Below are positions 12,365 through 47,321 of a stretch of DNA of 64,000 nucleotides, piece after piece. The stretch lies in contig NZ_BMWC01000002.1 in the NCBI RefSeq assembly GCF_014651035.1, forward strand, positions 186,001 through 250,000, read 5' to 3'. Below the pieces are notes generated by a model, which ran no database searches, had not been told where the DNA came from, and was given only the letters and a program-made list of their open reading frames with translations. Within the stretch, counting starts at the first letter, position 1. Each line of letters opens with the position of its first letter. Source of the stretch: Streptomyces lomondensis. GTDB taxonomy: Bacteria; Actinomycetota; Actinomycetes; Streptomycetales; Streptomycetaceae. Position numbers and translations under genes: made by a program.

Positions 12365-12459
12365 GGGTACGGTGCTCCTGGCTGGGGCGGTGGGCGGGGG
12401 TGCGCGGGGGTCCGTCGTACGGCTGCGCGCATCGTAAGCGGCGGAGGGACGGGGGCGGA

Positions 12460-13677: not shown

Positions 13678-13696
13678 CGGTCGGTCAGGGGCCAGG

Positions 13697-15274: not shown

Positions 15275-15448
15275 CTGAGGGGTCCTCCTCAATCGGTGGT
15301 GCGCTGTGGGGTGTGGTGCACGCCCGTCGAAGCCACCCGTGGAGTCATGGTCATGTCAACCTTGGGTGACTCCTGTGCGTCAGCCGAAAGATTGAGGCCT
15401 CCACAGGAATTGCACAAGGGCCCTGCACGCACGGGCCGGGGCAACACA

Positions 15449-15496: not shown

Positions 15497-15835
15497 CTAC
15501 TCGTTGACCGTCTGGAAGATGCTGAACTCGACCCCCTGGTCATCGACGCAGTTGGCGAACACTCCAGCGGGGATGGTCACCGGCTCCCCCGCCGTGCCGC
15601 CGAGTTCACGGACGCGCTCAATGGCCGCGTTCACGTCGTCGACGCTGAAGTAGACGCGCGGGAACTGCGACGTGTCCCCGTGCGAGGTGCCGCCCATCGG
15701 GTTCGGGCCGTGAATCATCGAGTAGCCCGGGAAGTTCCCCTCCTTGAACTCCCACCCGAACAGCGACTGCCAGAACTTCGCCGTCGCCTCGGCGTCCTTT
15801 CCAGGCAGGTCGAAGAAGACGATGTCTCCACTCAT
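15497..15835 (-). CDS. VOC-family (glyoxalase/bleomycin-resistance fold) protein
   Basis: 112 residues with the beta-alpha-beta-beta-beta VOC repeat twice: FFDLPGKDAEATAKFWQSLFGWEF, then RVYFSVDDVNAAIERVRELGG and a closing GVEFSIF strand. Members bind metals and catalyse isomerisation or oxygenation, or sequester drugs; the role here is open. ATG 15835 follows GAGGAGAGCGCC; a longer frame to 15865 has no such site. It borders the polyketide cluster and may be part of it or the last core gene. Confidence 0.85.
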   Translation of the reverse strand: MSGDIVFFDLPGKDAEATAKFWQSLFGWEFKEGNFPGYSMIHGPNPMGGTSHGDTSQFPRVYFSVDDVNAAIERVRELGGTAGEPVTIPAGVFANCVDDQGVEFSIFQTVNE

Positions 15836-16446
15836 GGCGCTCTCCTCATACGTGGTGATGTGCACTGATATGGATCGGCCGACGGTTGCGTCACTTCACA
15901 ACGGGGCCTCGACCTGGCGCGGTCGGCTTCGACGGCCGGCACGAATCGGGCCACCGTCGTCGGGAAGTCCTCGGGAACGTCGATGGCGCACGCCCGCAAT
16001 GCGGCAACGCGACCGGACGGGCGTCCGACATCACGCGCATCGGAACAGCGACTCGCCCCGGCCCGGCCGGCGTGGAACCTCGGCCCCGGGGGCGCGGGTG
16101 CTCGACATCGAACAATATCCTCATATATGCTGACGGTCGCTGGCTTCCACTATCCATACTGTAGTTGATCAGGCGTCTTGTCAATCAGGACTATAGACGA
16201 TTAGCGGCCATGCCAGAGGACCACGTGAGCTGTTCGCGGGGGTTACGACTCTGACAAGTGCCGACGCATACTGAGGGAGTCGGGATCAAGCCGGTCATGG
16301 CCAGTCGCGGCACCGCGGCCCGGACGACCCAAGACCAAGCGAGGGACGCAACGGGCTCGTCAAAGCAGGTAGACGCTACGCTCGTTCCGGTGGCTGAAAG
16401 TCGCGGCCTACCACAATCAAGCAACTGAGCGTAGACAGAGCTGACG
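15836..16446. other. Divergent regulatory gap between VOC and marR genes
   Basis: These 611 bases hold no convincing gene. The stretch near 16090-16200 is AT-richer than its surroundings and contains a promoter-like element on the minus strand (given separately). CATACTGA occurs at 16267-16274 upstream of the marR gene; the same 8-mer occurs in the P450 promoter of the cluster. Confidence 0.5.
16156..16184 (-). promoter_or_regulatory. Promoter-like element TTGACA-N17-CAGTAT
   Basis: On the minus strand a consensus -35 TTGACA (16184-16179) is followed after 17 bases by CAGTAT. It would read toward the VOC gene with a leader of about 300 bases. The 7-mer ATTGACA is shared with the two promoters at 32.8 and 33.1 kb. 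Activity is inferred from sequence only. Confidence 0.4.
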
Positions 16447-16944
16447 ATGGGTGACATGAACCGACCGGACACCAACCCCGACGGATCTCCGACCTTGCCT
16501 CCGAACTTCGCGAAATCCATCGGATTTCTGCTGAACAAGGCCGGGCAGCTGCTCACGGCGCAGTTCGAGAGCGAGCTCGCTCCGTACGGCCTCAGCGCGC
16601 GGAACTGGGGAGTCCTCCGGTTCATCGACGTCAACGGCAACCAGTCGCAGCAGTCCATCGGTGAGCAGTTGCGTATCGACCGGTCGACGATGGTGAACCT
16701 GGTCGACGAGCTGGAGCGGATGGGCTACGTCGTCAGGCTGCGCGACCCGCACGACCGCCGGCGCTACGCCGTGACGCTGACCGAGTACGGGCGGCGCCAG
16801 CTCCGCAGTGGCCTCGACTCGGTGGAGGACAAGGTGACGGACCGGTTCCTCGAACGCATCAGCGAACAGGACCGCGAGCGCTTGGTCTCGATCTTGATCT
16901 CATTGGTCGCACCTGACGGCATCACGCCGCCGGGCGCCGGCTGA
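16447..16944 (+). CDS. MarR-family transcriptional regulator
   Basis: 165 residues with a central winged helix (about 45-120): QSQQSIGEQLRIDRSTMVNLVDELER is the recognition helix and RDPHDRRRYAVTLTEYGRR the wing. MarR proteins are usually ligand-released repressors that sense aromatic compounds. It is the only transcription factor clearly associated with the polyketide cluster, so it is the first candidate for its cluster-specific regulator. A start at 16456 (second Met) is also possible. Confidence 0.93.
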   Translation: MGDMNRPDTNPDGSPTLPPNFAKSIGFLLNKAGQLLTAQFESELAPYGLSARNWGVLRFIDVNGNQSQQSIGEQLRIDRSTMVNLVDELERMGYVVRLRDPHDRRRYAVTLTEYGRRQLRSGLDSVEDKVTDRFLERISEQDRERLVSILISLVAPDGITPPGAG

Positions 16945-17139: not shown

Positions 17140-18471
17140 TCATCGCCTCGTCTCAGGCGGCTTCGGGCCCACGGGCCGGGCGAGCTTGGTGTGCTTCGGC
17201 TCCCCCATCCACTCCTCGGCCAGCTCGCGCAGATCCGCGTCGATCATCTGGCTCGGATAGGCCCAGCGCAGCAGCGGTGCGGTCATGGCCGTGGTGACGA
17301 GGGCCATGACCACCATCAGCGAGTACAGGTCCGTGTCGAGCAGCCCCAGTTGCAGGCCGATGCCAAGGATGATCAGTTCGGTGAGGCCGCGGGTGTTCAT
17401 GAGGATGCCCAGCGTCGTGGCCGATCGCCCGGACTGGCCGGCGACCCGTGCTCCGAGATAGGCGCCGCCGAACTTGCCGCCGATCGCCACGAGAAGGATC
17501 AGCCCCAGCTCGCCGAGTCCGTCGCCGCCCACCGTGGACAGGTCCACCTTCAGCCCTGCCACGGCGAAATACGCCGGCAGCAGCATCCAGGTGATCGTCG
17601 CAAACCGGTCCCTGATCGCCGCGCGCAGCCTCTCCGTGCCACGCCGTGGCACGATCGCGCCGGCGAGGAACGCACCGAAGATGAAGTGCAGTCCCAACCA
17701 CTCACTCAGCGCGCCGGAGACAAGCAGCAGCACCGTCAGCGCACCGAGCGCCCTGGTTCCGTTCCCGTGCTCCCCAGCCCCACGTTCGAGGTCTCCTCGG
17801 GCCCGCGCCGACGCGGCCAGGAGCCTGCCGAGCAACGGCCGTACCACCGCCACCATGGCCAGGGCGTACGGCACGACCAGCAGGACCTGCCAGGAGTTCT
17901 GGCTCCCGGTGAAGGTGAGCACGGCGGCGAGCAGGAGCCAGGCGGCGACGTCCCCGACGGCCGCACTCGCCATAGCCAGCGCGCCGATCCTGGTGTGCTG
18001 GATACCCCGGTCGGTGAGGATGCGGGCCAGTACCGGGAACGCGGTGATGGACATGGCCGCGCCGATGAACAGCAGGAAGCCGAGCCGGTGTCCGACCGGG
18101 TGGTCATTCCACAGGTGCAGCGCGAGCAGGACACCGAGTCCGAACGCGCAGACGATCGACCCGATGGACACCCCGGCCGTGGCACGCCCGTTCCCGCGCA
18201 GGAGCCGGTAGTCGAGTTCGAGGCCGACGAGGAACATGAAGAGCGCGACTCCGAGGTTGCCGAGCGTGGTGAGCATCGGCCGGATGTCCAGAGGTAAGAG
18301 CGTTTCGGACAGGGCGCCGTGGAACAGGGTCGGACCGAGCAGGATGCCGGCGAGGATCTCGCCGATGACCGCCGGCTGACCGCACCACCGCGCGAGGCGC
18401 CCGAGCACATGCGCGAGCGCGAGTATCGACGCCAAACCGACCATGATCATGGCTGTTTGGTGGGTGGTCAT
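17140..18471 (-). CDS. Cation:proton antiporter (CPA2 family)
   Basis: 443 residues and about 12-13 transmembrane helices of the Na+/H+ or K+/H+ exchanger domain (VIGEILAGILLGPTLF near residue 40; ILMNTRGLTELIILGIG near 365). Antiporters of this type often sit beside polyketide clusters and may serve pH/ion homeostasis or self-protection. ATG 18471 follows AAGGAGTG. Codon 59 is TTA (18295-18297), which suggests bldA-dependent translation. The C-terminal tail is basic and proline-rich. Confidence 0.92.
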   Translation of the reverse strand: MTTHQTAMIMVGLASILALAHVLGRLARWCGQPAVIGEILAGILLGPTLFHGALSETLLPLDIRPMLTTLGNLGVALFMFLVGLELDYRLLRGNGRATAGVSIGSIVCAFGLGVLLALHLWNDHPVGHRLGFLLFIGAAMSITAFPVLARILTDRGIQHTRIGALAMASAAVGDVAAWLLLAAVLTFTGSQNSWQVLLVVPYALAMVAVVRPLLGRLLAASARARGDLERGAGEHGNGTRALGALTVLLLVSGALSEWLGLHFIFGAFLAGAIVPRRGTERLRAAIRDRFATITWMLLPAYFAVAGLKVDLSTVGGDGLGELGLILLVAIGGKFGGAYLGARVAGQSGRSATTLGILMNTRGLTELIILGIGLQLGLLDTDLYSLMVVMALVTTAMTAPLLRWAYPSQMIDADLRELAEEWMGEPKHTKLARPVGPKPPETRR

Positions 18472-18788
18472 GGGCACTCCTTCTGCACAGGTGCCGTCCT
18501 TCGCGTGGGCGAGAAAAGAGCAGCTCCGGCAGCCGGGCACCGCGTCCTGGTCATCGGTCGAGTGCGGCGCGCGAAGAACGGAGAGTTTCTTGGCGAAGGA
18601 CAGCGCCGCGTGTTCCCCCGGCACGCGGCCTGCGCCCGGATGCGCCGTTCCTGACCCGCGGTGCGGATCTCACCACCTACCACCGAGTGCGGCGAACCGG
18701 GCCCGGTCGCGCGGGACGGCGCGGACGGGACTGTCCTCCCCGCACCGGCCCACGCCACCTGTGCGAGGCCGGTGCGGGAACGACCCGA
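18472..18788. other. Intergenic gap between antiporter and methyltransferase genes
   Basis: These 317 bases lie between two minus-strand genes. They hold the terminator of the biosynthetic operon (18739-18778) and presumably the antiporter promoter. No gene is supported in them. Confidence 0.5.
18739..18778 (-). terminator. Hairpin ending the biosynthetic operon
   Basis: A perfect 12-bp inverted repeat (arm CCCGCACCGGCC, 16-base loop) lies just past the stop of the methyltransferase gene, the last gene of the long minus-strand operon. Confidence 0.65.
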
Positions 18789-21247: not shown

Positions 21248-23248
21248 CTAGTGCTGTGGCTGTTTCGGGTCCGCCCCGACGCTTGCGGCGGCGACCATCG
21301 CGGCGCAGATCTGGGCGATGTCATCGTCCGTGCAGAGGTAGGGCGGCAGGCAGTAGATCAGGTTCCGGAAGGGACGCAGCCACACGCCTTCGCTGATTGC
21401 CGCGTCGGCCGTCCGCGGGTCGACGGGGTGGTCGAGTTCGATCACCCCGATGGCGCCGAGAACCCGGACGTCGGCGACACCGTCGACATTGACTGCCGCC
21501 CGCAGTCCCTGGCGAAGCGCCCTCTCGATCCGGGTCACGTCACTCCGCCAGTCGCCGGCGGCGAGCAGACCCAACGAGGCGTTGGCCACGGCCGCCGTCA
21601 GCGGGTTGCCCATGAAGGTCTGGCTGTGCGCCAGCACCGGCGGATCCCCCTGGCGGATCCCGGCCGCGACGCGCGGCGTGCACAGCGTCGCGGCCATGGA
21701 CATGTAGCCGCCGGTGAGCGCTTTGCCGAGGCACATCACGTCGGGCGTGACGCCGACGTGGTCGGCGGCGAACATGGCACCGGTGTGGCCGAATCCGGTG
21801 GCCATCTCGTCGAAGACCAGAAGCACGTCGTGCTCGTCGGCAAGGTCGCGGAGCACCCGCAGGTATCCGGGATCGTGGAAGCGCATCCCCCCGGCGCTCT
21901 GCACGACCGGTTCCACGATGATTGCCGCCAGCTCGTCGGCATGCTCCGCGATGGCCCGCGCCATGGTGTCGACATAGGCCGAGTCGAGCTGCTCGTTGTC
22001 GGTCCCTGCCGGGTCGGTGGCGTTCAGCAGGCTCGTGGACGACGACGCGGGCGGCGCCGGAAGGAATACCTGCTCGGGCAGGAGGCCCCGCCACGACGCG
22101 TGCCTCCCGTCGTCCGGGTCGCACACGCTCATCGCGTGGAAAGTAGCGCCGTGGTACCCACGGCGCCAGGTCAGTATCCGTCGTTTCTCGCTGCGGCCTG
22201 ACGCACTCCAGTACTGGAGGCACATCTTCAGCGCGACCTCGACCGACACCGCCCCGGAGTCGCAGAAGAACACGTGCTCCAGGCCGTCAGGCGTCAGCTC
22301 CACCAGCGTCCTCGCGAGCCGGATCGCCGGCTCGTGGGTCAGGCCACCGAACATCACGTGCGCGAATCGACTCGCCTGATCGGCCAGTGCCTTGTCCAGC
22401 ACCGGGTTGCGGTAGCCATGGATGGCAGCCCAGAACGACGACATCCCGTCGATGAGTTCCCGGCCGTCGGCGAGTGTCAGCCGGACACCTTCAGCTCCGG
22501 CGACCAGCAGCGGTTCGTCCACGCCCGGCATGGGGCGCAAGGGATGCCACACGTGGGCGCGGTCCAGGGCGAGCAGGTCGGCGGAGTCCGTTCCCGCGGC
22601 CCGGCTCGCGTGAGTCCTGGCGTCGCCCGGAGTCGCCCACCGTTGGGTGTCCCGGCCGAGCCAGGCCATCATCCGCGTGGTGTCCTCGGCTCCGGCCGCC
22701 GGCGGCAGCGCCTCACCGATCCGCCCTGGACCGCGCAGCGCCGCCTCCGGTACCTGCGCGCAGGTGTGCGCGATGTGGGCGAGCAGGGTGTCTGGCAGCC
22801 GGATCTGCCGGCCGGTCGCGGCCGCGATGTCCCAGGCGTGTACGGCGACATCCGCGACCGGGAACGCCAGCGCCCTGGCCAGGTTCTGGCGCCCGGTCGG
22901 CGTGTCGACCTTCAGATCCGGATCGGCCGCGGAGACGGCCGTGCGCGCCGCCGCCGCCGCGTCCCGCCACGCCGTCGCCGGATCAACCGCGGCCGCATCA
23001 CCGGGCTGTGACGGCGCGGGGGGCGTGGGCTCGCCACGCGCGATCAGGACGATCTTGCCCAGGGTGCCGATCACGTGTCCCACGACGTCCCGGACGGACC
23101 AGTCGGAGCACGGGGACTCGGTGTCCCATGCGTCGTCCGGAACTCCCGTCAGCGTCGCGTCGAACAGACTCACCGCCTCTGCGAGTGCCGTGACGATGTC
23201 TGGCGGCGCACCGGTCCGGACGGGCGCGGAAGCTGCGGCGTTGCTCAT
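21248..23248 (-). CDS. DinB-like (TIGR03086) domain fused to BioA-type PLP aminotransferase
   Basis: 666 residues. Residues 1-215 match the mycothiol-dependent maleylpyruvate isomerase/DinB-like class ([28 protein letters not shown] with metal-site His and Asp). Residues 222-660 match adenosylmethionine:8-amino-7-oxononanoate aminotransferase (BioA): [35 protein letters not shown] (Asp480), CLGKALTGG (PLP Lys509) and [13 protein letters not shown]. The BioA substrate Tyr in the WHPY motif is Leu (WHPL) and the Asp in GYHGDT is Ala, so a different amino acceptor than in biotin synthesis is likely. It may aminate a polyketide carbonyl. ATG 23248 follows AAGGAG. No stop or frame change lies between the domains. 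Confidence 0.9.
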
Positions 23249-23321: not shown

Positions 23322-24089
23322 TCACCGGTCGGACTCGACGAACCTGCCGGTCACCGCCACGACCCGGGTCCACCCGGCCCCGGCGTTCGCCACCGGTATC
23401 GGGAAGCACATGACGGTGAATCCCGTCGGACCGGGCAGCCGGTCGAGGTTGGCCAGCTTCTCCAGCTGCAGGTACTCGCGCTCCCGCCCATACACGTGCG
23501 CCGGCCAGAGCGTTCGCGGGTCCCCGTTGCGCCGGTAGTCCGCGATCATGCTCGCCATCGGCCGGTCCAGCCCCCACGCGTCGATGCCGATCACCCGGAC
23601 GCCCCGCTCCACCAGGAACCGCGTGGCGCCACCCGACAGGCCGGGATAGGTGGTCAGGTACTCGCTGCTTCCCCACAACCGGTCGGCGCCGGTCCACAGC
23701 AGCACGATGTCCCCGTCGCCGAGCGTGTGTTCGGCGACGCCCAGTGCCTCGGTCACATCGTCCTCGCTGATCTCCTCACCGGCTCCGACGTGTCGCAGAT
23801 CGAGCCGGACACCCGGACCGATGCACCACTCCAGGGGAACCTTGTCGATGCTCCGGGCCGGTTTGCCGCCACTGAGCGGGCCGTAGTGCAACGGCGCGTC
23901 CATGTGGGTCCCTGTGTGCGTCGTCAGCGTGATCGTCTCGTTCGAAATGGCGATGCCGTCCGGGAAGTCGGACGGGCTCAGTCCGAGGACCTTCGGCCCC
24001 TCCTCGTGCGTGAGGGTGTCGATGTGCACCGGAGTCGCTTCGCTCGCGGCCGGGCCGGTCGGCACGCTGAGGTCGATCAACGTGGCCAT
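23322..24089 (-). CDS. HxGTHxD cyclase-family protein (kynurenine-formamidase-like fold)
   Basis: 255 residues with the metal-binding signature [11 protein letters not shown] (58-68). The family includes formamidases and the aromatic-polyketide ring cyclases related to OxyN. In this setting a late ring-closing role is most likely. The ATG at 24089 overlaps the aromatase stop (TGATG), and a GTG one codon earlier is also usable, so the two are coupled. Downstream of it lies the aminotransferase fusion after 73 bases. Confidence 0.88.
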
Positions 24090-24586
24090 CACACGACCCT
24101 CTTGGCCTTCGCGGCACGGCGCTCCGCCTCGTCGCGGACGGCGGCCAGATGCGCCGTACTGTTGCGCTCGATGGCCCCGGCGAGCATCTCGTGGGCCTCG
24201 GCATGGGTGTACTGGCCGGCCACCTTTCCGTCCGCCCCCTCCGCGCGGGCGGCGAAGTCATGGGTCAGCACGATCTGGGTGCGGTCCGGTCCGTACGGCA
24301 GCGCCCGCCATTCCCCGCTCATGTGTTCCACGATCGGCGCGGTCTCCAGCTGGCGGTAAGCGACGACGCCCAGTTCCGGGTCCAGGTCGCGGCGGGTGGT
24401 CCACGCCTGGAGCTGCCCGCTGACGTCCACCTCGAGCCGTGCGATCTCGTAGCCGTCCCCTCGCTCTGTGATGACGGCGGACTTGGTGGCCTCGAAGAGG
24501 TTCGGGTAGTTCTCGATGTCGGCCAGCACCTCCCAGACGACACTCTGCGGCGCCTGCGCGGTCACGGTGTGCTCGGTGTGCTCCAT
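24089..24586 (-). CDS. Polyketide aromatase/cyclase (SRPBCC, single domain)
   Basis: 165 residues of the START/SRPBCC helix-grip fold used by TcmN/WhiE-type aromatase/cyclases: an N-terminal VVWEVLADIENYPNLF, a central DLDPELGVVAYRQL strand and a C-terminal long helix (about 135-160). It should catalyse first-ring cyclisation and aromatisation of the nascent poly-beta-ketone on the ACP. It follows the ACP gene after 29 bases. Confidence 0.92.
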   Translation of the reverse strand: MEHTEHTVTAQAPQSVVWEVLADIENYPNLFEATKSAVITERGDGYEIARLEVDVSGQLQAWTTRRDLDPELGVVAYRQLETAPIVEHMSGEWRALPYGPDRTQIVLTHDFAARAEGADGKVAGQYTHAEAHEMLAGAIERNSTAHLAAVRDEAERRAAKAKRVV

Positions 24587-24615: not shown

Positions 24616-24846
24616 TCAGGCCAGGTTTTCCAGGAAGGCGACCAGGTCGGCGACGGTCTCCACGGACTTCAGCGCCTTTCCGTCCGCCTTGCCCGGGGCG
24701 AGCTGGTTGACGATCTCGACGAGCTCGGCCGAGTCCACACCCAGGTCGCCGCGGAGCACAGCCCCGCTGGTGATCTCCGACGGCTCCAGGCCGACCTCGA
24801 CAAGGACGTCGAACACCTGGTCGTATGTGCTCTTGGTGGTGGCCAT
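24616..24846 (-). CDS. Type II PKS acyl carrier protein
   Basis: 76 residues, the usual length. The phosphopantetheine site is DLGVDSAELVEI with Ser39. It carries malonyl units and the growing chain for KS-alpha/CLF. ATG 24846 begins MATTKSTYDQVFDVL, preceded by GAAGAAGGTG. No phosphopantetheinyl transferase is encoded nearby, so one from elsewhere in the genome must activate it. Confidence 0.95.
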   Translation of the reverse strand: MATTKSTYDQVFDVLVEVGLEPSEITSGAVLRGDLGVDSAELVEIVNQLAPGKADGKALKSVETVADLVAFLENLA

Positions 24847-24872
24847 GACACCTTCTTCAAACGGCGAATGGA

Positions 24873-26069
24873 TCAGATGGCCCGCAGCACGCTCGCGGCG
24901 ATCGTGCCGTCGGCGCCCCTGGCGAGCAGGGCGACGGTGCGGACGGGCGTCTCCAGGGGCGTGCTGACGACGATGTCCGCGTCCCGCGGGTGCCGGCAGC
25001 CCGCCACCGGCGGGATCGTTCCGTGTCGCAGGCACAGCAGGGCGACCGCCGCGTCCACCGCGGGCGCCGCGCCGAGCAGGTTGCCGGTCACCGGCTTGGC
25101 CGTGGTGAGCGGTACCGGCCCGAGCACCGAGCGGATCGCGGACAGCTCGGATTCGTCCGCGTCGGAGGTTCCCTGTGCATCGAGAGCAACGCAGTCGACG
25201 CGGTCGGTGCCGGCCTCGTCGAGCGCTGCCGTGAGGACCGCGGCGAGCGCCGACGAGCCGGACGGCCCGAACACCTCGTCCTCCGGTACGTGCCGGACGG
25301 CGAAGCCGGCCAGCCGGGCCAGCGGGACCGCGCCGCGTGCCCGGGCCGTCTCGTCGCGCTCGAGGACGAGCATCACGGCACCCTCACCGACGCAGAACCC
25401 GTCCGCCTGATCGTCCCCCGGGCGGTAGGTCCCGGTGGGCGACAGCCGGCCCGAGGTGGTACAGAACGTGTACGTGTACGGCGTGACGGGCGCCTCGGCG
25501 CCGCCCGCGAGCAGCACGTCGGCCCGCCCTTCCGCCACCGCCCGGGCCCCGTAGCCGATGGCCAGCGCGGCACTCGCGCTGTCCGCCACGAGGGTCTTGC
25601 TGAAGCCGGTCAGACCGTTTCCGATGGTGATCTGACCCTGCGGCGCCGTCGGGAACCACGCCGACGCTATGTGCGGGCTGACCGCGGTGTAGCCCCGCTG
25701 CTGCAAGCCTCGCAGGCTCGGTTCGGTGATCTCCCAGCCACCGAACATGTTGCCCATGTACACGCCGGTCCGATCGGCGTCCGCGCTCGGGGCGAGCCCG
25801 GCGTCGCCCTTGGCGGATCGGGCGGCGGAGAGCGCCAGCTGGCAGAAGCGGTCCATCCGCTTGCGCACCCTGGGGGTGAACGTGCCGATGGTCTCCCGCT
25901 CGGTCTCCTCGGCCAGGAAGCCGGCGTTCGGGCAGGGGTAGGAGTCCGTGGCGAATCGCTCGATGGGCCGCACGGCGCTCCGGCCCTCGGTCACCGAACG
26001 CCAGAGCTGGTCGGCGTCCGAGGCACCGGGCAGGGCGAGCCCGATTCCGGTGATCACCGTGCCGGTCAT
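24873..26069 (-). CDS. Type II PKS ketosynthase beta subunit / chain length factor
   Basis: 398 residues with the thiolase fold of KS-beta. It pairs with KS-alpha and sets chain length. The position of the catalytic Cys is Ser164 (VADSASAALAIG), where most CLFs have Gln, and the first catalytic His region is DAQGTSD with no His. ATG 26069 overlaps the KS-alpha stop (ATGA), as in most type II clusters. It should form a heterodimer that cannot itself do Claisen condensation. The chain length cannot be read from the sequence by eye. Confidence 0.95.
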   Translation of the reverse strand: MTGTVITGIGLALPGASDADQLWRSVTEGRSAVRPIERFATDSYPCPNAGFLAEETERETIGTFTPRVRKRMDRFCQLALSAARSAKGDAGLAPSADADRTGVYMGNMFGGWEITEPSLRGLQQRGYTAVSPHIASAWFPTAPQGQITIGNGLTGFSKTLVADSASAALAIGYGARAVAEGRADVLLAGGAEAPVTPYTYTFCTTSGRLSPTGTYRPGDDQADGFCVGEGAVMLVLERDETARARGAVPLARLAGFAVRHVPEDEVFGPSGSSALAAVLTAALDEAGTDRVDCVALDAQGTSDADESELSAIRSVLGPVPLTTAKPVTGNLLGAAPAVDAAVALLCLRHGTIPPVAGCRHPRDADIVVSTPLETPVRTVALLARGADGTIAASVLRAI

Positions 26070-27340
26070 CGTCCGCTCTCCCCGGAGCCGGTCCTGCGCG
26101 GGCTGCCGAGTACGACCGTGGAGTGGATTCCCCCGAAGCCGCTGGACAGGCTGGCGATGACCTCTACCGGTTCTTCCCGTGCCTCATTGGGCACGTAGTC
26201 GAGGTCGCAGGCATCGCCGGGAGTGTGGTGGTTGATCGTCGGTGGGATCACGCCGTCGCCCAGGGCCAGCACGCACGCCACGAGCTCCAGCGCGTTCGCC
26301 GCTGCCAGCGCGTGGCCGACCATCGACTTGATCGAGCTGACCGGGACCCGGTAGGCGTGTGCCCCGAGCACCGTCTTGATCGCGTTGGTCTCGCACACGT
26401 CGTTCTGCGGTGTCGAGCTGCCGTGTGCGTTGACGTAGTCGACGCTCGTGGCGGGAAGCCGGGCGTCGTCCAGCGCGAGCTGGAAGGAACGGGCGAGGTG
26501 CGTTCCGTCACTGGCCAGATCGGTCATGTGGAACGCGTTCGACGTGCTCCCGAAGCCGAGGACCTCGGCGAGGATCGGCGCCCCTCGGCGGCGGGCGTGC
26601 TCCCATTCCTCGAGCACGGCCACACCGGCACCCTCGCCGAGTACGAACCCGTCCCGATCGGCGTCGAACGGCCGGGAGGCGCCCTCCGGATCGTCGTTGC
26701 GCGTGGACAGGGCACCGATCACGTCGAAGCAGGCGACGACGAACGGGGTCAGCGGAGCTTCGGCGGCGCCGGTGACCATCACGTCCGCCTCGCCGCGGCG
26801 GATCGTGTCGAGCGCGAAACCGACCGCGTCGTTGCCCCCGGTGCATCCGGTGGCCGGGGTCGTCACCGGGCCGCGCATCCCGTGCGCGTCGGCGATCGCC
26901 GCCGCGGGCCGGTTGAACGTGGCCGCGACGTGCAGGCGTGGGTGGGCCGCGGCCACGTCGATCGCGGACGTGCCGCCGCCGGTGATCCGCGGGAAGTGCT
27001 CGGTCATGAACTTCGTTCCGCCGATCGCGTTGGCCATGACGACACCGACCCGTTCCGGGGCGATGTCGTCGTCGAGCAGGCCGGCCGAGGCGATGGCCTC
27101 CTGGGCAGCTCGCATGGCGATCCGGACGACCCGGTCGTCGCCGGCGCTGTGATCGACGGAGAGGCCGGGCAGATCGCACTCGGGCAGCGTCCCGTAGATC
27201 CGGGAGGCCAGCCCGGACGTGTCGAACTCGCGGGCGGCGATCACCCCGGAGCGGCCGGCGCAGAGCCCGGCCATGAAGTCCTTGGTCCCGATGCCGTTGG
27301 GGGACAGGACTCCGAGCCCGGTCACGGCGACCCGCCTCAC
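26066..27340 (-). CDS. Type II PKS ketosynthase alpha subunit
   Basis: 424 residues, the catalytic condensing enzyme. The catalytic triad is visible: Cys166 (TTPATGCTGGNDAVG), His306 (VNAHGSSTP) and His343 (SMVGHALAAAN). The residues after Cys (TGGND) differ from the TSGLD common in aromatic KS-alphas. It has the usual FGSTSNAFHMTD region. The GTG start at 27340 overlaps the methyltransferase stop (GTGA), while the stop overlaps the CLF start, so three genes are coupled in a row. Confidence 0.96.
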   Translation of the reverse strand: MRRVAVTGLGVLSPNGIGTKDFMAGLCAGRSGVIAAREFDTSGLASRIYGTLPECDLPGLSVDHSAGDDRVVRIAMRAAQEAIASAGLLDDDIAPERVGVVMANAIGGTKFMTEHFPRITGGGTSAIDVAAAHPRLHVAATFNRPAAAIADAHGMRGPVTTPATGCTGGNDAVGFALDTIRRGEADVMVTGAAEAPLTPFVVACFDVIGALSTRNDDPEGASRPFDADRDGFVLGEGAGVAVLEEWEHARRRGAPILAEVLGFGSTSNAFHMTDLASDGTHLARSFQLALDDARLPATSVDYVNAHGSSTPQNDVCETNAIKTVLGAHAYRVPVSSIKSMVGHALAAANALELVACVLALGDGVIPPTINHHTPGDACDLDYVPNEAREEPVEVIASLSSGFGGIHSTVVLGSPRRTGSGESGR

Positions 27341-28350
27341 GACACAGCCCCACGCGTAGCGGCCACGAGCGTGCCCGGCCCGGTCGGCGACCGTAGCTGT
27401 CGGCGGACCGGCAGGCCCGCCTCGGCGAGCCACTGGCCGTAGTCGTCGAGGCTGTGTGCCGAGCCCTCACTCGTCATCAGCATCTGGAGGGAGAAGAACG
27501 CGCCGACGGGATCGGTCTCCGTGTCGTCCGGGACGATCTCGTAGAGCAGCAGCACGCCGTCGTCCGCCAGCGCCGCCGCGGACAGCCGCAGAATCTCGCG
27601 CACCTGCGCGGGCGGGTACCCGTGCAGCAGATTGCCCAGCAGCACCACGTCGTAGGGCCCGCCCCAGGGCTCGGTGAACAGGTCCCCGGACCGGTACTCG
27701 GCCCGGTCCCCCAACCCCGCGTCACGGGCGAGCCTACGGGCCTCGGACACCGAGATCTCCCGGTCGATGCCGACGACCGTGCCACCCCAGCTCTCCGTCA
27801 GAGCGCGGCCGGTGCCGCCGTACCCGCACCCCACGTCGAGGATCCGGGGCCGGGGCCGGACCAGGCCCTCGACGGCGCCGGCGATCCATCGCCCGGCGCC
27901 CACCCCGAGTGCGTCCAGATAGGGCGTGATCTTGCCCCAGACATCGTCCGCCCGGTCGGCGAAGATCTCCTTGCACGGAATGCCGCTGCGCACCGCTTCG
28001 GTGAGCTGGGGCCAGATCCGGTAGTTCAGCTCCCGGTGGATGTGCCGCATGTCCCCGAGGTAGGCACGCGAGCCGCGGACCAGGTACGTCGCGACGTCGT
28101 CGGCCAGTCGGTAGCGGTCGCCCTCGCGATGCACGAACTCCGACGCGTGCAGCGCGGTGAGCAGCGCGTGCAGGCCCCGCCTGCTCGCACCGGTGCGGCG
28201 GCCCAGATCCTCCAGCGTGTCGTTGCCCTCGGCGATGGCCGTGAAGACGTCCAGGTCGAGCGCCGTGACCAGGGTGGCCGTACGCCCCAGCCCCCAGGCG
28301 AAATCGTGGATACGGGCTGGTGTGGGTGTGGTGACGGACTGCTCAGACAA
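27337..28350 (-). CDS. O-methyltransferase (dimerising polyketide/caffeate type)
   Basis: 337 residues. The N-terminal winged dimerisation domain (about 10-100; TLEDLGRRTGASRRGLHALL) precedes a Rossmann SAM domain with ILDVGCGYGGTGRAL (about 170) and YDVVLLGNLLHGYPPAQV (usual form LHDW). Such enzymes methylate phenolic hydroxyls of aromatic polyketides. The acidic partner that normally follows the LH pair is absent (LHGY), which may alter the catalytic mechanism or site. It overlaps the SDR stop by eight bases and KS-alpha by four. Confidence 0.92.
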   Translation of the reverse strand: MSEQSVTTPTPARIHDFAWGLGRTATLVTALDLDVFTAIAEGNDTLEDLGRRTGASRRGLHALLTALHASEFVHREGDRYRLADDVATYLVRGSRAYLGDMRHIHRELNYRIWPQLTEAVRSGIPCKEIFADRADDVWGKITPYLDALGVGAGRWIAGAVEGLVRPRPRILDVGCGYGGTGRALTESWGGTVVGIDREISVSEARRLARDAGLGDRAEYRSGDLFTEPWGGPYDVVLLGNLLHGYPPAQVREILRLSAAALADDGVLLLYEIVPDDTETDPVGAFFSLQMLMTSEGSAHSLDDYGQWLAEAGLPVRRQLRSPTGPGTLVAATRGAVS

Positions 28351-29086
28351 GGCTCAGCCCTCCGTCCACGACGAGCGTGGCGCCGGTTACGTAGGAGGAC
28401 GCGTCGGACACGAGGAAGCGGGCGACGTCCGCGACCTCGTGCGCGGTGCCGAGTCGGCGCAGCGGAATGCGTCCCCGCTCCGCCTCGGCCTGCTCCTCGT
28501 GTCCCCGCACCAGCTTCCGGGACATCGGGGTGTCGATGAATCCCGGGATGATCGTGTTGACCCGGATCCCCGCCGGACCGTAGGCGACGGCGAGATCCCG
28601 GGTGTGCGCGACGATCCCGGCCTTGGCCGCGGTGTACGGCGCCCGGGACGGGCTCGGCTTGAGCCCGCCCGCGATGCTTGAGCAGGTCACGATCGATCCG
28701 CCCGCGGACATCGAGGGCAGTACCGCGCGGCACACGCCCGTGGTCCCTCGTAGGTTGACGTCGAGCACCCTCGTCCACAGCTCGTCGTCGAGCTCGGCCG
28801 GTGGTCCCCAGTTGTCGACGACGGCGGCGAACGTCAGGCACGCGTGGATCCGGCCGGCCCGCGCGACGACCTCGGAGACCGCGTCGCGCACCGCGTCGGA
28901 GTCGGCCACGTCGAGATGGCGGACGCCGAGAAGGGTGGTCTCCTCGGCGAGGGACTTCAGGCCCACGTCGTCCACGTCGAGGGCCATCACCGACGCTCCG
29001 GCGTCCGCGAGAACGCGGGCGGTCGCCCGGCCGATCCCGGATGCGGCGCCGGTGACGAGGCAGACCCTGTCTGTTAAGACTGTCAT
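28343..29086 (-). CDS. Short-chain dehydrogenase/reductase
   Basis: 247 residues of the classical FabG-like SDR: NAD(P) motif TGAASGIGRA (about 12-21), catalytic Ser in CSSIAG and YTAAK (Tyr/Lys). It may be a polyketide ketoreductase or a tailoring reductase; there is no other candidate KR in the cluster. Codon 4 is TTA (29075-29077), an early position, so a lack of charged leu-tRNA(UUA) should hit it strongly. Start ATG 29086 overlaps the Dabb stop (ATGA). Confidence 0.92.
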   Translation of the reverse strand: MTVLTDRVCLVTGAASGIGRATARVLADAGASVMALDVDDVGLKSLAEETTLLGVRHLDVADSDAVRDAVSEVVARAGRIHACLTFAAVVDNWGPPAELDDELWTRVLDVNLRGTTGVCRAVLPSMSAGGSIVTCSSIAGGLKPSPSRAPYTAAKAGIVAHTRDLAVAYGPAGIRVNTIIPGFIDTPMSRKLVRGHEEQAEAERGRIPLRRLGTAHEVADVARFLVSDASSYVTGATLVVDGGLSLV

Positions 29087-29412
29087 GTTCGTATTTCCTG
29101 TTCGTCTGCGGTGTTGGCGAAAGCGACGCCGATGCCGAGACGGCGGACCCAGACGTCCACCACGTCGCTCATGGCGGGGTGCACGGAGAAGGCGCGCAAC
29201 TGCTCGAGATCGGTGAACTCCCACCGTGCGGCCACCGAGTACAGCGACTCGGTCGCCGCGTCGTCGGCCGGCAGCGGGACGTGCCGACCCGCCGTGAACC
29301 GTTCGACCACGCCCGTCCTCCGGGTGGCCTCGGCGAGCTCGTCGCGGAACCGGGCCCGATCCGTCTCGGACATCGATTCCGGATATCGGTAGAGGACGAC
29401 ATGCGCGATCAT
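29083..29412 (-). CDS. Dabb-domain (stress-responsive A/B barrel) protein, possible TcmI-like cyclase
   Basis: 109 residues forming one ferredoxin-like alpha/beta barrel: HVVLYRYPESM at the start, FTAGRHVPLP and LRAFSVHPAMSDVVDVW at the end. In type II PKS clusters, small dimeric barrels of this kind act as later-ring cyclases or anthrone-type oxygenases. It is sandwiched between overlapping genes (ATGA on both sides), so its stoichiometry is coupled to the amidohydrolase and SDR. Confidence 0.82.
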   Translation of the reverse strand: MIAHVVLYRYPESMSETDRARFRDELAEATRRTGVVERFTAGRHVPLPADDAATESLYSVAARWEFTDLEQLRAFSVHPAMSDVVDVWVRRLGIGVAFANTADEQEIRT

Positions 29413-30482
29413 GCTGCTCCCTTGTCGCGGACGGTCAGCGGCTCACCCAGCCCGAGTAACGCCCGGGCGTTGCCGGATTCGATGGCGTGGAGCGTCGCCG
29501 TCGGGAGTGAGGCCCCCCGCAGCACCTCCAGCGCGCCGGCGCGCCCGAGCTCGCCGGGCGTCACCGGGAAGTCGCTGCCGAACAGGATCCGCTCCTCCCC
29601 GAGCGCCTCGAGGGCGCACCGCAGCCCGGTGGCGTCGGCGGAGTGCGTGTCCGCGTAGATGTTGCCGGCGTAGTCGCGCAGGTGGCGCAACGCGCCGGAG
29701 GCCCGCGCGGCGTCAGCGTCCGCACCGGCGAGGAGCCGGTGGATCAGGTCGAACCGGCCGAGCGCGATCGGCAGCACACCACCGAGCTGGCCGAACACCA
29801 GCCGCAGCCCGGAGTGCTGCTCGAGCCTGCCACTCAGCACCAGGCGGGTGATGCAGAGGGTCGTCTCGACCAGCATGGACAGGGCGCCGGTCAGCAGATG
29901 TTCGGCGCGTCCGGGCAGCGGCGGCTCGGACCCGAGGTGGAACTTCGCCGAGGGATGGACGAACAGGACGACGCCGCTCGCCTCGGCGGCGGCCAGCACC
30001 GGGGCGAACGCCGGGTCGTCGAGGAACCGCAGCCGGCCGGTCGAGGGCTCCAGGTAAGCGCTGTTCATCGAGATCGCGGGGATGCCTCCGTCCGTGGCCG
30101 CCCGCTCGATCTCGGTCTCGGCCGAGTCGACGAACCGGGGGTCCACCCAACGCGCGGCCTGCAGACGCCCACCGGTCCGCGTGGCCCACGCCCGCATCTC
30201 GTCGTTGACCGTGGCGATGGTGTCGGCCGGCCCTCGCCGCCGCTCGCCGCGCAGTGCGGCCGCGTGCAGCGCTGCCACGGCGTTCGAGCTGTGCGTCAGT
30301 ACGGTGGTCTCGATCCCGTGCAGATCGGCGTCGGCCACCTGCCGCTCCGGGCCGTCGAACGCCGGGGACGACCAGAGCCCCGGGGGCCCTTCGGCCGTCG
30401 AACCCGACTCGGCGAGCCACTCCAGGAACGCCGACTGGACCCACGGTGGTAACCCGTGCGCGTGCGCGTCGACGACCGTCAT
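29409..30482 (-). CDS. Amidohydrolase-2 (ACMSD-like) family protein
   Basis: 357 residues of the TIM-barrel amidohydrolase family that includes ACMSD and salicylate/resorcylate decarboxylases. Metal ligands are visible: HAH (His7, His9), LFVHPSAKFH (His176) and FGSDFP (Asp304). The segment equivalent to the catalytic HGGG/HLGG is FGQLGG, so the usual His is Gln. It could decarboxylate a phenolic acid intermediate, but the missing His makes this uncertain. Codons 11 and 342 are TTA. ATG 30482 overlaps the halogenase stop (ATGA). Confidence 0.85.
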   Translation of the reverse strand: MTVVDAHAHGLPPWVQSAFLEWLAESGSTAEGPPGLWSSPAFDGPERQVADADLHGIETTVLTHSSNAVAALHAAALRGERRRGPADTIATVNDEMRAWATRTGGRLQAARWVDPRFVDSAETEIERAATDGGIPAISMNSAYLEPSTGRLRFLDDPAFAPVLAAAEASGVVLFVHPSAKFHLGSEPPLPGRAEHLLTGALSMLVETTLCITRLVLSGRLEQHSGLRLVFGQLGGVLPIALGRFDLIHRLLAGADADAARASGALRHLRDYAGNIYADTHSADATGLRCALEALGEERILFGSDFPVTPGELGRAGALEVLRGASLPTATLHAIESGNARALLGLGEPLTVRDKGAA

Positions 30483-31780
30483 CGTTTCACTGTCTCGACG
30501 TGGGCCCACGGCATGCCCATGTTGCGGCTCGTGGCCAGGCGGCCCTCCGCGACGCCGTCCGGTGCCGCGTCGTGGTGCGGCTGCATCACGGCCAGCTCGG
30601 CGTTGAGGCCGGAGACCATGATGATGAAGTCGTCCCGGGCGGTCATCCGGCCGATCGGGTCGATCAGATCCTTCGCCTTGGCCCAGTACGCCTCGACGTC
30701 CTTGCTGGCGTCGTAGAAGAAGCGCACGAAGGACAGCACGGTGCCGAGGAAGTCGCGCAGGCCCTCGTCGTAGGCCTGCGCGAACTCGTCCTCGCGGGCA
30801 GGCTCGTGCAGCATCGCGGAGATGGTGGCCGCGGCCGAGCTGGCGCCCTTCATCGCGAGCGTGACCCCGGTGGAGAACAGCGGGTCGATGAAGGCCGCGG
30901 CGTCGCCGACCATCAGGTAGCCGGGTCCGTAGAACCGGGAGCAGGTGTAGGACCAGTCCTTCGCCGTGCGGCATCCCGCCACCTGGGTGGCGTCCCGCAG
31001 CAGCTGCTTGGCCTCGCGCGACGTGGCGATCTTGCTTTCGAGCAGCTCCAGATTCGGCCGTGTGTCCTCGGCGATCTGGTCGTTCGGGCCTACGAATCCC
31101 ACGCTCTGGGTGCCGTCGGACAGCGGGATGACCCAGAGCCAGCCGTCCGGGTGGTTCTCGACGAGGATGTTGCCGGACAGCTCGTCCGGAAGCCGCCGGC
31201 CACCCTGGTAGTAGGTCCACACGGCCAGGTTCTTCAGGTCGTCGTGCATTTCGACCAGCCCGAACTCCCGGCCGAGAATCTTGGCCTGGCCGGAGGCGTC
31301 GACGATGTAGCGGGCCTCCGCCCGGATCGGCTCCGTCCCGCGGCCGACCGTGTACGTCACGCCGGTGGCCCGGCCATCGCTGGTCAGTACCTCGCGCACC
31401 GACGCATGCTCGACGACCATGGCTCCGAGCTTGCGTGCGTGCTCAAGTAATATGAGGTCGAAATCAGCGCGCTTGACCTGCCACGTGTAGTCGTAGGGGC
31501 CGCTCTCCCCGAACGCGATGCTCCACAGCTTGCCCTCGGCTCCCCAGAGCAGCGAGATACCCGCCTTGCGGGTGAAACCGGCGGCATCGACGGCGTCCCG
31601 GACGCCGAGCTCGTCGATGACGGTGTTCAGGCCAGGTATGAGCGACTCACCTATGTGGTAGCGGGGGAACTGTTCCTTCTCCAGGACCAGCACGTCGTGC
31701 CCGGCCTTGGCCAACAGTCCGGCCGTGGTGGCTCCGGAGGGGCCTCCACCGATGACGATGGCGTCGTAAGTACGGGTCAT
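30479..31780 (-). CDS. FAD-dependent halogenase (phenolic, tryptophan-halogenase-like family)
   Basis: 433 residues. The FAD fold GGGPSGATTAGLLA (11-24) leads. The halogenase marks are WLWVIP (214-219, WxWxIP motif), the FIDPLFSTG region (Fx.Px.SxG) and a Lys72 in RKAGISLLWG that aligns with the catalytic Lys carrying the hypohalous species. It should chlorinate or brominate an electron-rich ring, using FADH2 from a separate reductase not encoded here. The family also contains hydroxylases, so biochemical proof is needed. Codon 111 is TTA (31448-31450). It follows the malonyltransferase after 42 bases. Confidence 0.87.
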   Translation of the reverse strand: MTRTYDAIVIGGGPSGATTAGLLAKAGHDVLVLEKEQFPRYHIGESLIPGLNTVIDELGVRDAVDAAGFTRKAGISLLWGAEGKLWSIAFGESGPYDYTWQVKRADFDLILLEHARKLGAMVVEHASVREVLTSDGRATGVTYTVGRGTEPIRAEARYIVDASGQAKILGREFGLVEMHDDLKNLAVWTYYQGGRRLPDELSGNILVENHPDGWLWVIPLSDGTQSVGFVGPNDQIAEDTRPNLELLESKIATSREAKQLLRDATQVAGCRTAKDWSYTCSRFYGPGYLMVGDAAAFIDPLFSTGVTLAMKGASSAAATISAMLHEPAREDEFAQAYDEGLRDFLGTVLSFVRFFYDASKDVEAYWAKAKDLIDPIGRMTARDDFIIMVSGLNAELAVMQPHHDAAPDGVAEGRLATSRNMGMPWAHVETVKR

Positions 31781-31822: not shown

Positions 31823-32776
31823 TCAGCCGCGCGTGCCGGTGAGGGCACGCAGGTGGGTCGTGTCGCCGCAGGGATGGATCTCCTGTCCGCGATCGACCTT
31901 GCGGATCAAGCTGCGCAATGTGGTTCCGGGGCCGACCTCGACGATCCGGCTCGGCCGGTGGGCGACGATCCGACGGGCCGTCCGCGTCCAGTGCACGGGT
32001 GCGGTGATCTGGTGGGCCAGGACGTCGCGGTAGCGCTCGAGGTCGGTGACCAGCTCGCCGGTGACGCTGCTGATCATCGGCGTGTGACCACGGCGCAGCG
32101 GCAGGGCGGCGATCGTGGCCCTGAGCTCGTCCTCGGCGGGCCGCATGAGCGGCGAGTGGAACGCGCCTGCTACGGGCAGGGGCCGAGAGACGGCGATCGA
32201 CTCCGCACGGATCGCCTCCCTGATCTCCTCGACGGTCGCGGCGTCGCCGGAGATGACGGTCTGCCGAGGAGAGTTGTAGTTGGCGATGACGGCGGTGCCC
32301 GGGCGCCCGTCGTCGCGTCGCCCGGGGTGCTGCGCCAGGACCCGGGCGACCTCGTCCGAGTCGATGCCCAGCACCGCCGCCATCGCACCGGGCCGCTCCT
32401 GGCAGCAGCGGGCCATGGCGTGAGCGCGCCGCACCACGGTCGCGGCGGCCTCGTCCAGATCGAGCCAGCCGCCGGCGACGAGGGCGGTGAACTCGCCGAG
32501 GCTGTGACCCGCGACCAGCTGGGGTACGACGCCTTCCTCGGTGAGGGCCCGGGTCATTGCGACACCGAAGGTGAACAGGACGAGCTGGGCCGTCCCCGTC
32601 TCGCGTAGCCGGTCCTCCGGACCGTGCACCATCGGCTCGATCACAGGACGACCCGTGACGGCCTCGACGTGCTCGAACACCTCTGTCATCCGAGGCCGGT
32701 CGTGCATCAGGTCGGCCCCCATCCCGACGACCTGACTCCCCTGGCCGGGATAGACGAATGCGGTCTGGATCGACAT
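31823..32776 (-). CDS. Acyl-carrier-protein S-malonyltransferase (cluster-encoded)
   Basis: 317 residues of the FabD fold: GQGSQ (11-15), nucleophile GHSLG (Ser92) and GAFHS (204-208), the form linked to malonyl rather than methylmalonyl substrates. Most type II PKSs borrow FabD from fatty-acid synthesis, so a dedicated copy is notable. It is the first gene of the operon, about 30 bases downstream of a strong promoter-like element. It may load malonyl or a special starter on the ACP. Confidence 0.94.
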   Translation of the reverse strand: MSIQTAFVYPGQGSQVVGMGADLMHDRPRMTEVFEHVEAVTGRPVIEPMVHGPEDRLRETGTAQLVLFTFGVAMTRALTEEGVVPQLVAGHSLGEFTALVAGGWLDLDEAAATVVRRAHAMARCCQERPGAMAAVLGIDSDEVARVLAQHPGRRDDGRPGTAVIANYNSPRQTVISGDAATVEEIREAIRAESIAVSRPLPVAGAFHSPLMRPAEDELRATIAALPLRRGHTPMISSVTGELVTDLERYRDVLAHQITAPVHWTRTARRIVAHRPSRIVEVGPGTTLRSLIRKVDRGQEIHPCGDTTHLRALTGTRG

Positions 32777-33408: not shown

Positions 33409-34656
33409 ATGATGAGTTCCTACACCCAGCAGGCGTCGGCGGCCGAAGTCGACAGCATACTCGGCGAGTTGTTCACGAACCCGGCGTGCGCCGCCGACCC
33501 GTATCCGACCTATCATCGCCTGCGCGAAGTCGCGCCGGTGGCTCGCAGCCAAGCTGGTCACTGGGTCTTGAGCGGGTACGCCCAGGTCGTCGATGTTCTT
33601 CGATCGACCGAGGTCGGCAAAGACGTGCAGAGTTTCATCCGCGCTCAAGGCGTCGAGGACTGGGCGGACCACCCGTCTTACACACGCGTACTAGAGCACC
33701 TCATATGGTCGAATCCCCCGAAGCACACGCGGCAGCGAAAGCTGATCAGCAAGGGTTTTACAGCTCACTCCATCGCCAAGCTGGAGCCGAAGATCGAGCA
33801 ACTGGTCGACGAGCTCTTGACGCCTCTCGCCGAGAACGCGGGAGAGGTGGACATTCTCCGTGAGTTCGCCTTCCCGCTGCCGGCCTCGGTGATCAGCGAG
33901 ATCATCGGAGTGCCCCGGGAAGACTGGCCTCGATTCCAGCAGCTCTTCCGGGACGTGACGCTCGCGATGGAGCCGCGTCCGAGCCCGGCGCAGCTGGCCA
34001 CCGCAGACAGCGCGGCAATAGCGATCGACGACTACTTCGAAGAGTTGATCGCCAAGCGGCGCAAGCGCCCGGAGGACGACCTCGTCTCGACACTGCTCGC
34101 GGCGGAGGACGATGGTGAACAGTTGAGTCACCGTGAGCTCATGAGCTTGGTTCAGTTCCTGTTCGGTGCCGGCTTCGAAAGCACGACGAACCTGATCGGC
34201 AACGGCCTCCTGGCCCTGCTTCGCAACCCCGATCAGATGCTCGCCCTGCGTCGCGAACCGGACCTGGCGGCAGGGGCCGTGGAGGAGCTCTTGAGGTATG
34301 ACGCCTCAGTGCAGCTCAGTCCCCGGACAGCGCGCAACGATCTCCAGCTCGGCGACGTCACGATCCCGGCCGGCGAATCGATCGTGGCGTTGCTCGGCGC
34401 AGCGAATCGTGATCCGAGCCGATACCGCGACCCCGATCGCCTGGACGTGCGCCGGACCGATGTCAAGCCGGTTTCCTTCGGGGGCGGCATACATTTCTGC
34501 CTGGGAGCAGCCCTTGCCCGGCTCGAAGGTCGTTTTGCCCTACAGGGACTGACACGCAAGTTCTCCCGAATCGAACTCGCCGCGGAACCGGTGTGGAAGC
34601 AGTCCTTGACCCTGCACGGGCTCCAGGGGCTTCGAGTCCACCTGACGCCTGCCTAG
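33409..34656 (+). CDS. Cytochrome P450
   Basis: 415 residues of the soluble bacterial type. The heme loop is FGGGIHFCLG with Cys364; the I-helix oxygen-activation motif is AGFEST (254-259) with Ser at the position of the usual Thr and Thr next to it; the ExxR pair is in ELLR (293-296). It likely hydroxylates or couples the polyketide; electron donors are not encoded here. ATG 33409 and 33412 are tandem starts after GAGGAA. It is the first gene of the plus-strand arm and reads toward the MFS exporter after 137 bases. Confidence 0.96.
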   Translation: MMSSYTQQASAAEVDSILGELFTNPACAADPYPTYHRLREVAPVARSQAGHWVLSGYAQVVDVLRSTEVGKDVQSFIRAQGVEDWADHPSYTRVLEHLIWSNPPKHTRQRKLISKGFTAHSIAKLEPKIEQLVDELLTPLAENAGEVDILREFAFPLPASVISEIIGVPREDWPRFQQLFRDVTLAMEPRPSPAQLATADSAAIAIDDYFEELIAKRRKRPEDDLVSTLLAAEDDGEQLSHRELMSLVQFLFGAGFESTTNLIGNGLLALLRNPDQMLALRREPDLAAGAVEELLRYDASVQLSPRTARNDLQLGDVTIPAGESIVALLGAANRDPSRYRDPDRLDVRRTDVKPVSFGGGIHFCLGAALARLEGRFALQGLTRKFSRIELAAEPVWKQSLTLHGLQGLRVHLTPA

Positions 34657-45573: not shown

Positions 45574-47244
<1,671 letters not shown>

Positions 47245-47321
47245 CGAGGGCGGTGACGAATCGCCTCCACGGGGAACAGTGGTCGCGGCGCGGACGCTGT
47301 GACACGTGGAGGTGATCGTCG

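What the first reader, a model, noticed from the sequence alone, without database searches (positions are those of the whole stretch)
21248..23248. In-frame fusion of a DinB/mycothiol-type domain with a BioA aminotransferase
Residues 1-215 look like a TIGR03086-type metal-binding DinB domain and 222-660 like BioA, in one open frame with one good ribosome site. The DinB part in free proteins uses mycothiol in isomerase or transferase reactions. Joining it to a PLP aminotransferase suggests a two-step activity on the same intermediate or a carrier role. I know of no characterised enzyme with this architecture.
Basis: partly seen in the sequence, partly recalled or inferred. Interest (0 to 1): 0.75.

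Follow-up and report, generated by a model that had tools for sequence, protein, structure and literature searches.

The report
DinB-domain aminotransferase fusion in polyketide cluster
A Streptomyces gene joins a metal-binding mycothiol-enzyme-like domain to an altered copy of a biotin-pathway aminotransferase; the same joined gene sits in the same rare polyketide gene cluster in at least four species, so it is real and probably a dedicated amine-installing enzyme of an unknown natural product.

Summary
One open frame on the minus strand (21248-23248, 666 aa) carries a TIGR03086/MDMPI_N domain (residues 23-199) and a class-III aminotransferase that scores above the BioA cut-offs (223-656). 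It is not an assembly artefact: three other Streptomyces encode the same 666-residue protein at 84-86% identity, in the same type II polyketide cluster. Both halves are under purifying selection and the linker is not. Samples of about 200-250 genomes of the order, genus and class show no further fusion. The aminotransferase half is probably not a DAPA synthase: the host has its own bioA beside bioB and bioF, and residues invariant in 20 BioA proteins are replaced at the substrate pocket (Mtb Y25, W64, D160, G172, R262), while the PLP lysine and other core residues are kept. The N-terminal domain keeps a His/Asp/His metal triad, and its predicted fold is closest to mycothiol-dependent maleylpyruvate isomerase (Z 14.7). 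Most likely this is a cluster-specific tailoring enzyme that transaminates a carbonyl of the polyketide. The DinB domain may act on the same intermediate, perhaps with mycothiol, but this is inference. New variant of known parts, in an orphan and very divergent type II PKS cluster.

The parts
21248..23248 (-). Fusion gene, 666 aa: TIGR03086/MDMPI_N domain plus BioA-derived class-III aminotransferase
   Evidence: full-length orthologues in three genomes
22652..23182 (-). N-terminal DinB/MDMPI_N domain, residues 23-199; putative metal ligands H58, D133, H137
   Evidence: fold closest to 2nsf/2nsg, Z 14.6-14.7
22583..22633 (-). Linker, residues 206-222, the only long stretch without purifying selection
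   Evidence: dN/dS about 0.85-1.2 against the window copy; halves 0.2-0.47
21281..22582 (-). Aminotransferase domain, residues 223-656; PLP lysine K509, D480, Y365, T544, R625 kept; L237, F272, A368, D380, H488 replace BioA-invariant residues
19507..21093 (-). CrtO/CrtI-like FAD oxidoreductase, next gene downstream (start uncertain)
   Evidence: conserved in all four clusters
23322..24092 (-). PF04199 putative cyclase
24089..24586 (-). SRPBCC polyketide cyclase/aromatase
24616..24861 (-). Acyl carrier protein (start uncertain)
24873..26069 (-). Chain-length-factor-like ketosynthase
   Evidence: nearest non-fusion relative in 247 genomes 43% identical
26066..27433 (-). Ketosynthase alpha (start codon uncertain)
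27337..28350 (-). O-methyltransferase (start uncertain)
28343..29086 (-). Short-chain dehydrogenase/ketoreductase (start uncertain)
29083..29412 (-). Dabb-domain protein
29409..30458 (-). PF04909 amidohydrolase (start uncertain)
30479..31780 (-). CmlS-like FAD enzyme with a GWLWVIP motif, candidate halogenase
31823..32776 (-). Malonyl-type acyltransferase
33409..34656 (+). Cytochrome P450
34794..36014 (+). MFS transporter
17140..18624 (-). Na/H exchanger family transporter, conserved beside the cluster
16447..16944 (+). MarR regulator, conserved beside the cluster

Best explanation
A real two-domain tailoring enzyme of a rare type II polyketide cluster. Shown: one continuous protein, conserved as such in four Streptomyces, both halves selected, fixed position in a conserved cluster. 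Well supported: the C-terminal half is a working PLP aminotransferase that descends from BioA but has changed its substrate pocket, so it transfers an amino group to (or from) a substrate other than KAPA, most simply a ketone or aldehyde of the polyketide. Inferred: the N-terminal metal-binding DinB domain acts on the same intermediate just before or after transamination. For example, it could be a mycothiol-assisted isomerisation of an enone or ring-opening product (the chemistry of its nearest structural relative) or a thiol transfer, with the fusion keeping the intermediate local. The confidence given is for a cluster-specific aminotransferase with a new substrate; the specific joint chemistry is rated separately in the section on the most novel reading.
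For: Full-length 666-aa orthologues in G097, Streptomyces sp. TRM68367 and B-S-A8. Both halves under purifying selection, linker not. Same gene order in all four, from acyltransferase to MarR. Separate bioA next to bioB and bioF in the host genome and a second bioA in G097. 27 columns that are invariant or nearly so in 20 BioA proteins differ in every fusion, including Mtb Y25, W64, D160, G172 and R262, while the K283, D254, Y157, T318 and R400 equivalents are kept; Trp64, Tyr25, Asp160 and the Gly172-Gly173 peptide line the BioA pockets in PMC12485673. Fusions form one clade on a branch of 0.7 outside Streptomyces BioA. TIGR03086 above cut-off; H58/D133/H137 match the zinc triad His52/Glu144/His148 of MDMPI given in PMC4351081, with the same i, i+4 spacing of the last two; nearest fold 2nsg/2nsf at Z 14.7/14.6 against 11.2 for the next.
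Against: No substrate, product or metal is known. No mycothiol amidase-like gene was recognised in the cluster. TIGR03086 proteins are mostly uncharacterised, and a DinB fold does not imply mycothiol use. The predicted structure of the aminotransferase half was too poor to judge how the active sites face each other.
Confidence: 0.75

Rival explanations
1. The DinB domain is not catalytic: it is a docking or dimer-stabilising module (for the ACP or a partner enzyme), and the only reaction is transamination.
For: The N-terminal half changes somewhat faster than the C-terminal half (dN/dS 0.38-0.47 against 0.26-0.32 versus the window copy). Glu144 of MDMPI is Asp here.
Against: The His/Asp/His triad is invariant in all four fusions and in the distant relatives L026 and L027, which is not expected of a pure scaffold.
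Confidence: 0.3
2. The DinB domain is a self-protection or detoxification module (as ClbS or mycothiol S-transferase are) that quenches a reactive polyketide intermediate with mycothiol, next to an unrelated transaminase activity.
For: ClbS (Z 10.0) and M. tuberculosis mycothiol S-transferase (Z 8.6) are among the fold matches; ClbS is a DinB protein in a natural-product cluster.
Against: MDMPI matches far better (Z 14.7). A resistance function gives no reason for fusion to the aminotransferase.
Confidence: 0.15
3. The enzyme is simply a second DAPA synthase (BioA) that picked up an extra domain.
For: Scores above two BioA equivalog cut-offs.
Against: Pocket residues invariant in all BioA compared are replaced; host has a biotin locus with its own bioA; the gene sits in a polyketide operon in all four genomes.
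Confidence: 0.05
4. Assembly or annotation artefact joining two separate genes.
For: None found.
Against: Three independent genomes carry the same 666-aa frame.
Confidence: 0.01

Closest known systems
BioA, adenosylmethionine-8-amino-7-oxononanoate aminotransferase (M. tuberculosis 3tft; host's own bioA)
   Same: Same fold family and length; 62% identity to the host's BioA; PLP lysine and the Asp254, Tyr157, Thr318 and Arg400 equivalents kept
   Different: Carries an extra N-terminal domain; Y25, W64, D160, G172, R262 replaced; lies in a polyketide cluster, not a biotin locus
Mycothiol-dependent maleylpyruvate isomerase (2nsf)
   Same: Nearest solved fold of the N-terminal domain (Z 14.6-14.7, 175 residues, 13-14% identity); metal triad kept
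   Different: Glu144 is Asp133; fused to an aminotransferase; substrate unknown
TIGR03086 family metal-binding proteins
   Same: 119 bits against a cut-off of 83
   Different: The family is, to my knowledge, usually stand-alone and mostly uncharacterised; best relatives found outside the fusions are about 28-36% identical
LmbV/CcbV with LmbF/CcbF of lincosamide biosynthesis
   Same: A DinB-type protein with the MDMPI zinc triad and a separate PLP enzyme used in one natural-product pathway (PMC4351081, PMC5518657)
   Different: Separate proteins; the lincosamide PLP enzymes act on an S-cysteinyl residue; no LmbE-like amidase recognised here
EgtB/OvoA and ClbS
   Same: DinB-fold domains in thiol chemistry or natural-product clusters; EgtB and OvoA show that DinB domains occur fused to catalytic domains (fold hits)
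   Different: No aminotransferase; different chemistry

Membership tests
BioA (DAPA synthase) | Curated HMM score over cut-off | tested here: met
   TIGR00508 525.5 vs 405; NF004624 539 vs 494
BioA (DAPA synthase) | PLP lysine and core catalytic residues | tested here: met
   K509, D480, Y365, T544, R625 in all four fusions
BioA (DAPA synthase) | Substrate-pocket residues invariant in BioA (Mtb Y25, W64, D160, G172, R262) | tested here: not met
   L/F237, F272, A368, D380, H488; all 20 BioA compared keep the original residue
BioA (DAPA synthase) | Location with biotin genes | tested here: not met
   Polyketide operon; the host's biotin locus is elsewhere
BioA (DAPA synthase) | KAPA to DAPA activity with SAM | not testable with these tools
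   needs enzyme assay or bioA complementation
TIGR03086 / MDMPI_N domain | Curated HMM score over cut-off | tested here: met
   119.4 vs 83; PF11716 53.6 vs 24.2
TIGR03086 / MDMPI_N domain | His, Glu/Asp, His metal triad | tested here: met
   H58, D133, H137 in all four fusions; MDMPI triad from PMC4351081
Mycothiol-dependent maleylpyruvate isomerase | Overall fold | tested here: met
   Z 14.7, rmsd 3.0, 175 residues, model pLDDT 81; a shared fold does not show function
Mycothiol-dependent maleylpyruvate isomerase | Mycothiol dependence and isomerase activity | not testable with these tools
   needs enzyme assay
Type II PKS cluster | KS alpha, chain length factor and ACP adjacent | tested here: met
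   24616-27433; closest solved KS alpha is that of actinorhodin

The most novel reading that the evidence does not exclude
A single bifunctional enzyme that first isomerises (or thiol-activates) an oxidatively opened or enone polyketide intermediate with mycothiol in its DinB domain and then aminates it in its BioA-derived domain, in an uncharacterised, possibly chlorinated, amine-bearing product from a very divergent type II PKS.
Probability: 0.3. Interest if true: 0.7.

Novelty: new variant of a known kind. Interest (0 to 1): 0.5.

Why it matters
Automatic annotation would call this gene biotin aminotransferase because it passes the BioA cut-offs; the residues say otherwise. It gives a natural case of a housekeeping aminotransferase recruited to polyketide tailoring, with a metal-binding thiol-enzyme-like domain attached, in a cluster whose chain length factor is at most 43% identical to any other seen in a sample of 247 Streptomyces genomes. 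The cluster is a good target for product discovery, and the fusion is a clear test of whether DinB domains act in sequence with PLP chemistry.

Tried and rejected
Frameshift or chimeric assembly: rejected by three independent genomes. Internal start making two proteins: candidate start codons at residues 193, 194, 233 and 240 are conserved, but no ribosome site stands out near the linker; not excluded experimentally. Sequence search of the N-terminal domain against the PDB, alone and as a profile, found nothing; only the fold comparison did. AlphaFold2 of the full length with five sequences gave a poor C-terminal half (mean pLDDT 49), so nothing is said about how the domains face each other. 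A scan of viral contigs for the aminotransferase half gave nothing. Plasmid records hold no fusion. The nearest other KS/chain-length-factor clusters (L051, L052; about 40-47% identical) share a PF04199 cyclase, methyltransferases and an acyltransferase, but show no match to the fusion in the 20 kb taken around them. Literature searches for a DinB or maleylpyruvate-isomerase fusion with an aminotransferase in polyketide clusters gave nothing useful. Searches of 400 genomes failed on the server and were replaced by samples of about 200-250. The compound made by the cluster was not identified.

Full report
Observation. The frame 21248-23248 on the minus strand encodes 666 residues without a stop. 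The N-terminal part matches MDMPI_N (23-142) and TIGR03086 (23-199), both over their curated cut-offs. The C-terminal part matches Aminotran_3 and two BioA equivalog models over their cut-offs. AAGGAG precedes the ATG and is conserved.

Is the fusion real? Yes. Of 198 sampled genomes of the order, only the host and G097 have a full-length copy; the latter is 84% identical. A scan of the 84,980-species genome collection with N-terminal patterns found two more, Streptomyces sp. TRM68367 and B-S-A8. All four proteins are exactly 666 residues and align without gaps. Samples of 247 genomes of the genus and 247 of the class gave no further one. The samples overlap with each other, and the scan used exact short patterns, so more copies may exist. 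The fusion is therefore fixed but rare.

Selection. Across the six pairs, dN/dS is 0.20-0.47 for residues 21-205 and 0.20-0.32 for 223-666. For the linker 206-222 it is 0.85-1.2 against the window copy; among the other three it rests on too few silent sites to use. Both halves are thus maintained; the linker is free.

Context. The gene lies in an operon-like run on the minus strand: acyltransferase, CmlS-like FAD enzyme with a GWLWVIP motif, PF04909 amidohydrolase, Dabb protein, SDR, O-methyltransferase, KS alpha, chain length factor, ACP, SRPBCC cyclase, PF04199 cyclase, fusion, CrtO-like FAD oxidoreductase. A Na/H exchanger, MarR, a glyoxalase-fold protein, P450 and MFS transporter flank it. 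These are found in the same order at 80-95% identity in the other three genomes, as far as the DNA held reaches. The chain length factor has no relative above 43% in 247 Streptomyces genomes apart from G097, so the cluster is an isolated lineage of type II PKS. The GWLWVIP motif suggests a halogenase, but this is not proven.

The aminotransferase half. It is 62-63% identical to the stand-alone BioA of the host and of G097. The host's stand-alone gene sits with bioB and bioF. In an alignment with 20 BioA proteins, 27 positions that are invariant or nearly so in the BioA set are never that residue in the fusions; a few of these merely match Mtb BioA, so the count overstates the change, but the pocket positions below do not. 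In M. tuberculosis numbering (offset 12 from the aligned segment, consistent with Tyr25, Trp64, Tyr157, Asp160, Phe402 and Arg403 of PMC12485673) they include Y25 to L or F, W64 to F, S125 to A, D160 to A, G172 to D, R262 to H and P317 to Q. The lysine that binds PLP (K509), D480, Y365, T544 and R625 are kept. From general knowledge of E. coli BioA, the equivalents Tyr17, Asp147 and Arg253 matter for DAPA synthase activity; that literature was not in the library and was not read. The fusions form one clade with full support on a long branch outside Streptomyces BioA; long-branch effects with the Mtb sequence mean the exact root is unsure. I conclude that the enzyme is very likely active in PLP chemistry but not a DAPA synthase.

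The N-terminal half. A model of residues 1-221 has mean pLDDT 81 and pTM 0.82. Its best solved relatives are 2nsg and 2nsf, mycothiol-dependent maleylpyruvate isomerase (Z 14.7 and 14.6, 175 residues aligned); the next is Z 11.2. Foldseek agrees on the top hits but only at E about 1e-3. H58, D133 and H137 are invariant in the fusions and correspond to the zinc ligands His52, Glu144 and His148 quoted in PMC4351081, the last two with the same spacing of four. Asp at the middle ligand is also seen in the distant relatives L026 and L027. Metal binding is likely; mycothiol use is only suggested.

Mechanism. Shown: a single protein, two maintained domains, a polyketide cluster. Strongly inferred: transamination of a pathway carbonyl. 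Weakly inferred: metal and perhaps mycothiol chemistry by the DinB domain on the same intermediate. One coherent picture is an oxidised, possibly ring-opened polyketide whose enone is isomerised as maleylpyruvate is, then aminated. The PF04909 amidohydrolase and two FAD enzymes would fit but do not prove it. The lincosamide pathway shows that a DinB-type protein and a PLP enzyme can serve one natural product as separate proteins (PMC4351081; PMC5518657, abstract only).

Verdict. Observation confirmed; interpretation partly supported; a new variant built from known domain families. The combination was not found described in the open-access library, but absence there is weak evidence.

Noticed in passing
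window 30479-31780 (-): FAD enzyme, best NCBIfam match the CmlS halogenase model (266 bits, below cut-off), with a GWLWVIP motif like the WxWxIP motif of flavin halogenases: the product may be chlorinated.
   Followed up: partly
window 24616-27433 (-): KS alpha/chain length factor pair of a very divergent type II PKS lineage; nearest other chain length factor among 247 Streptomyces genomes is 43% identical.
   Followed up: partly
window 15497-15865 (-): Glyoxalase-fold protein (PF18029) near the MarR gene, conserved beside the cluster in all three other genomes: possible resistance gene.
   Followed up: no
window 12400-15292: A serpin-like gene lies next to a gene for a subtilisin-family protease with a P-domain, a possible inhibitor and protease pair.
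   Followed up: no
L012: G197 has two bioA-like genes on one contig; the copy in L012 is on a longer branch than most, a possible second case of BioA recruitment, though its pocket residues are BioA-like.
   Followed up: no
window 45574-48725 (+): Class I and class II fumarase genes lie side by side.
   Followed up: no
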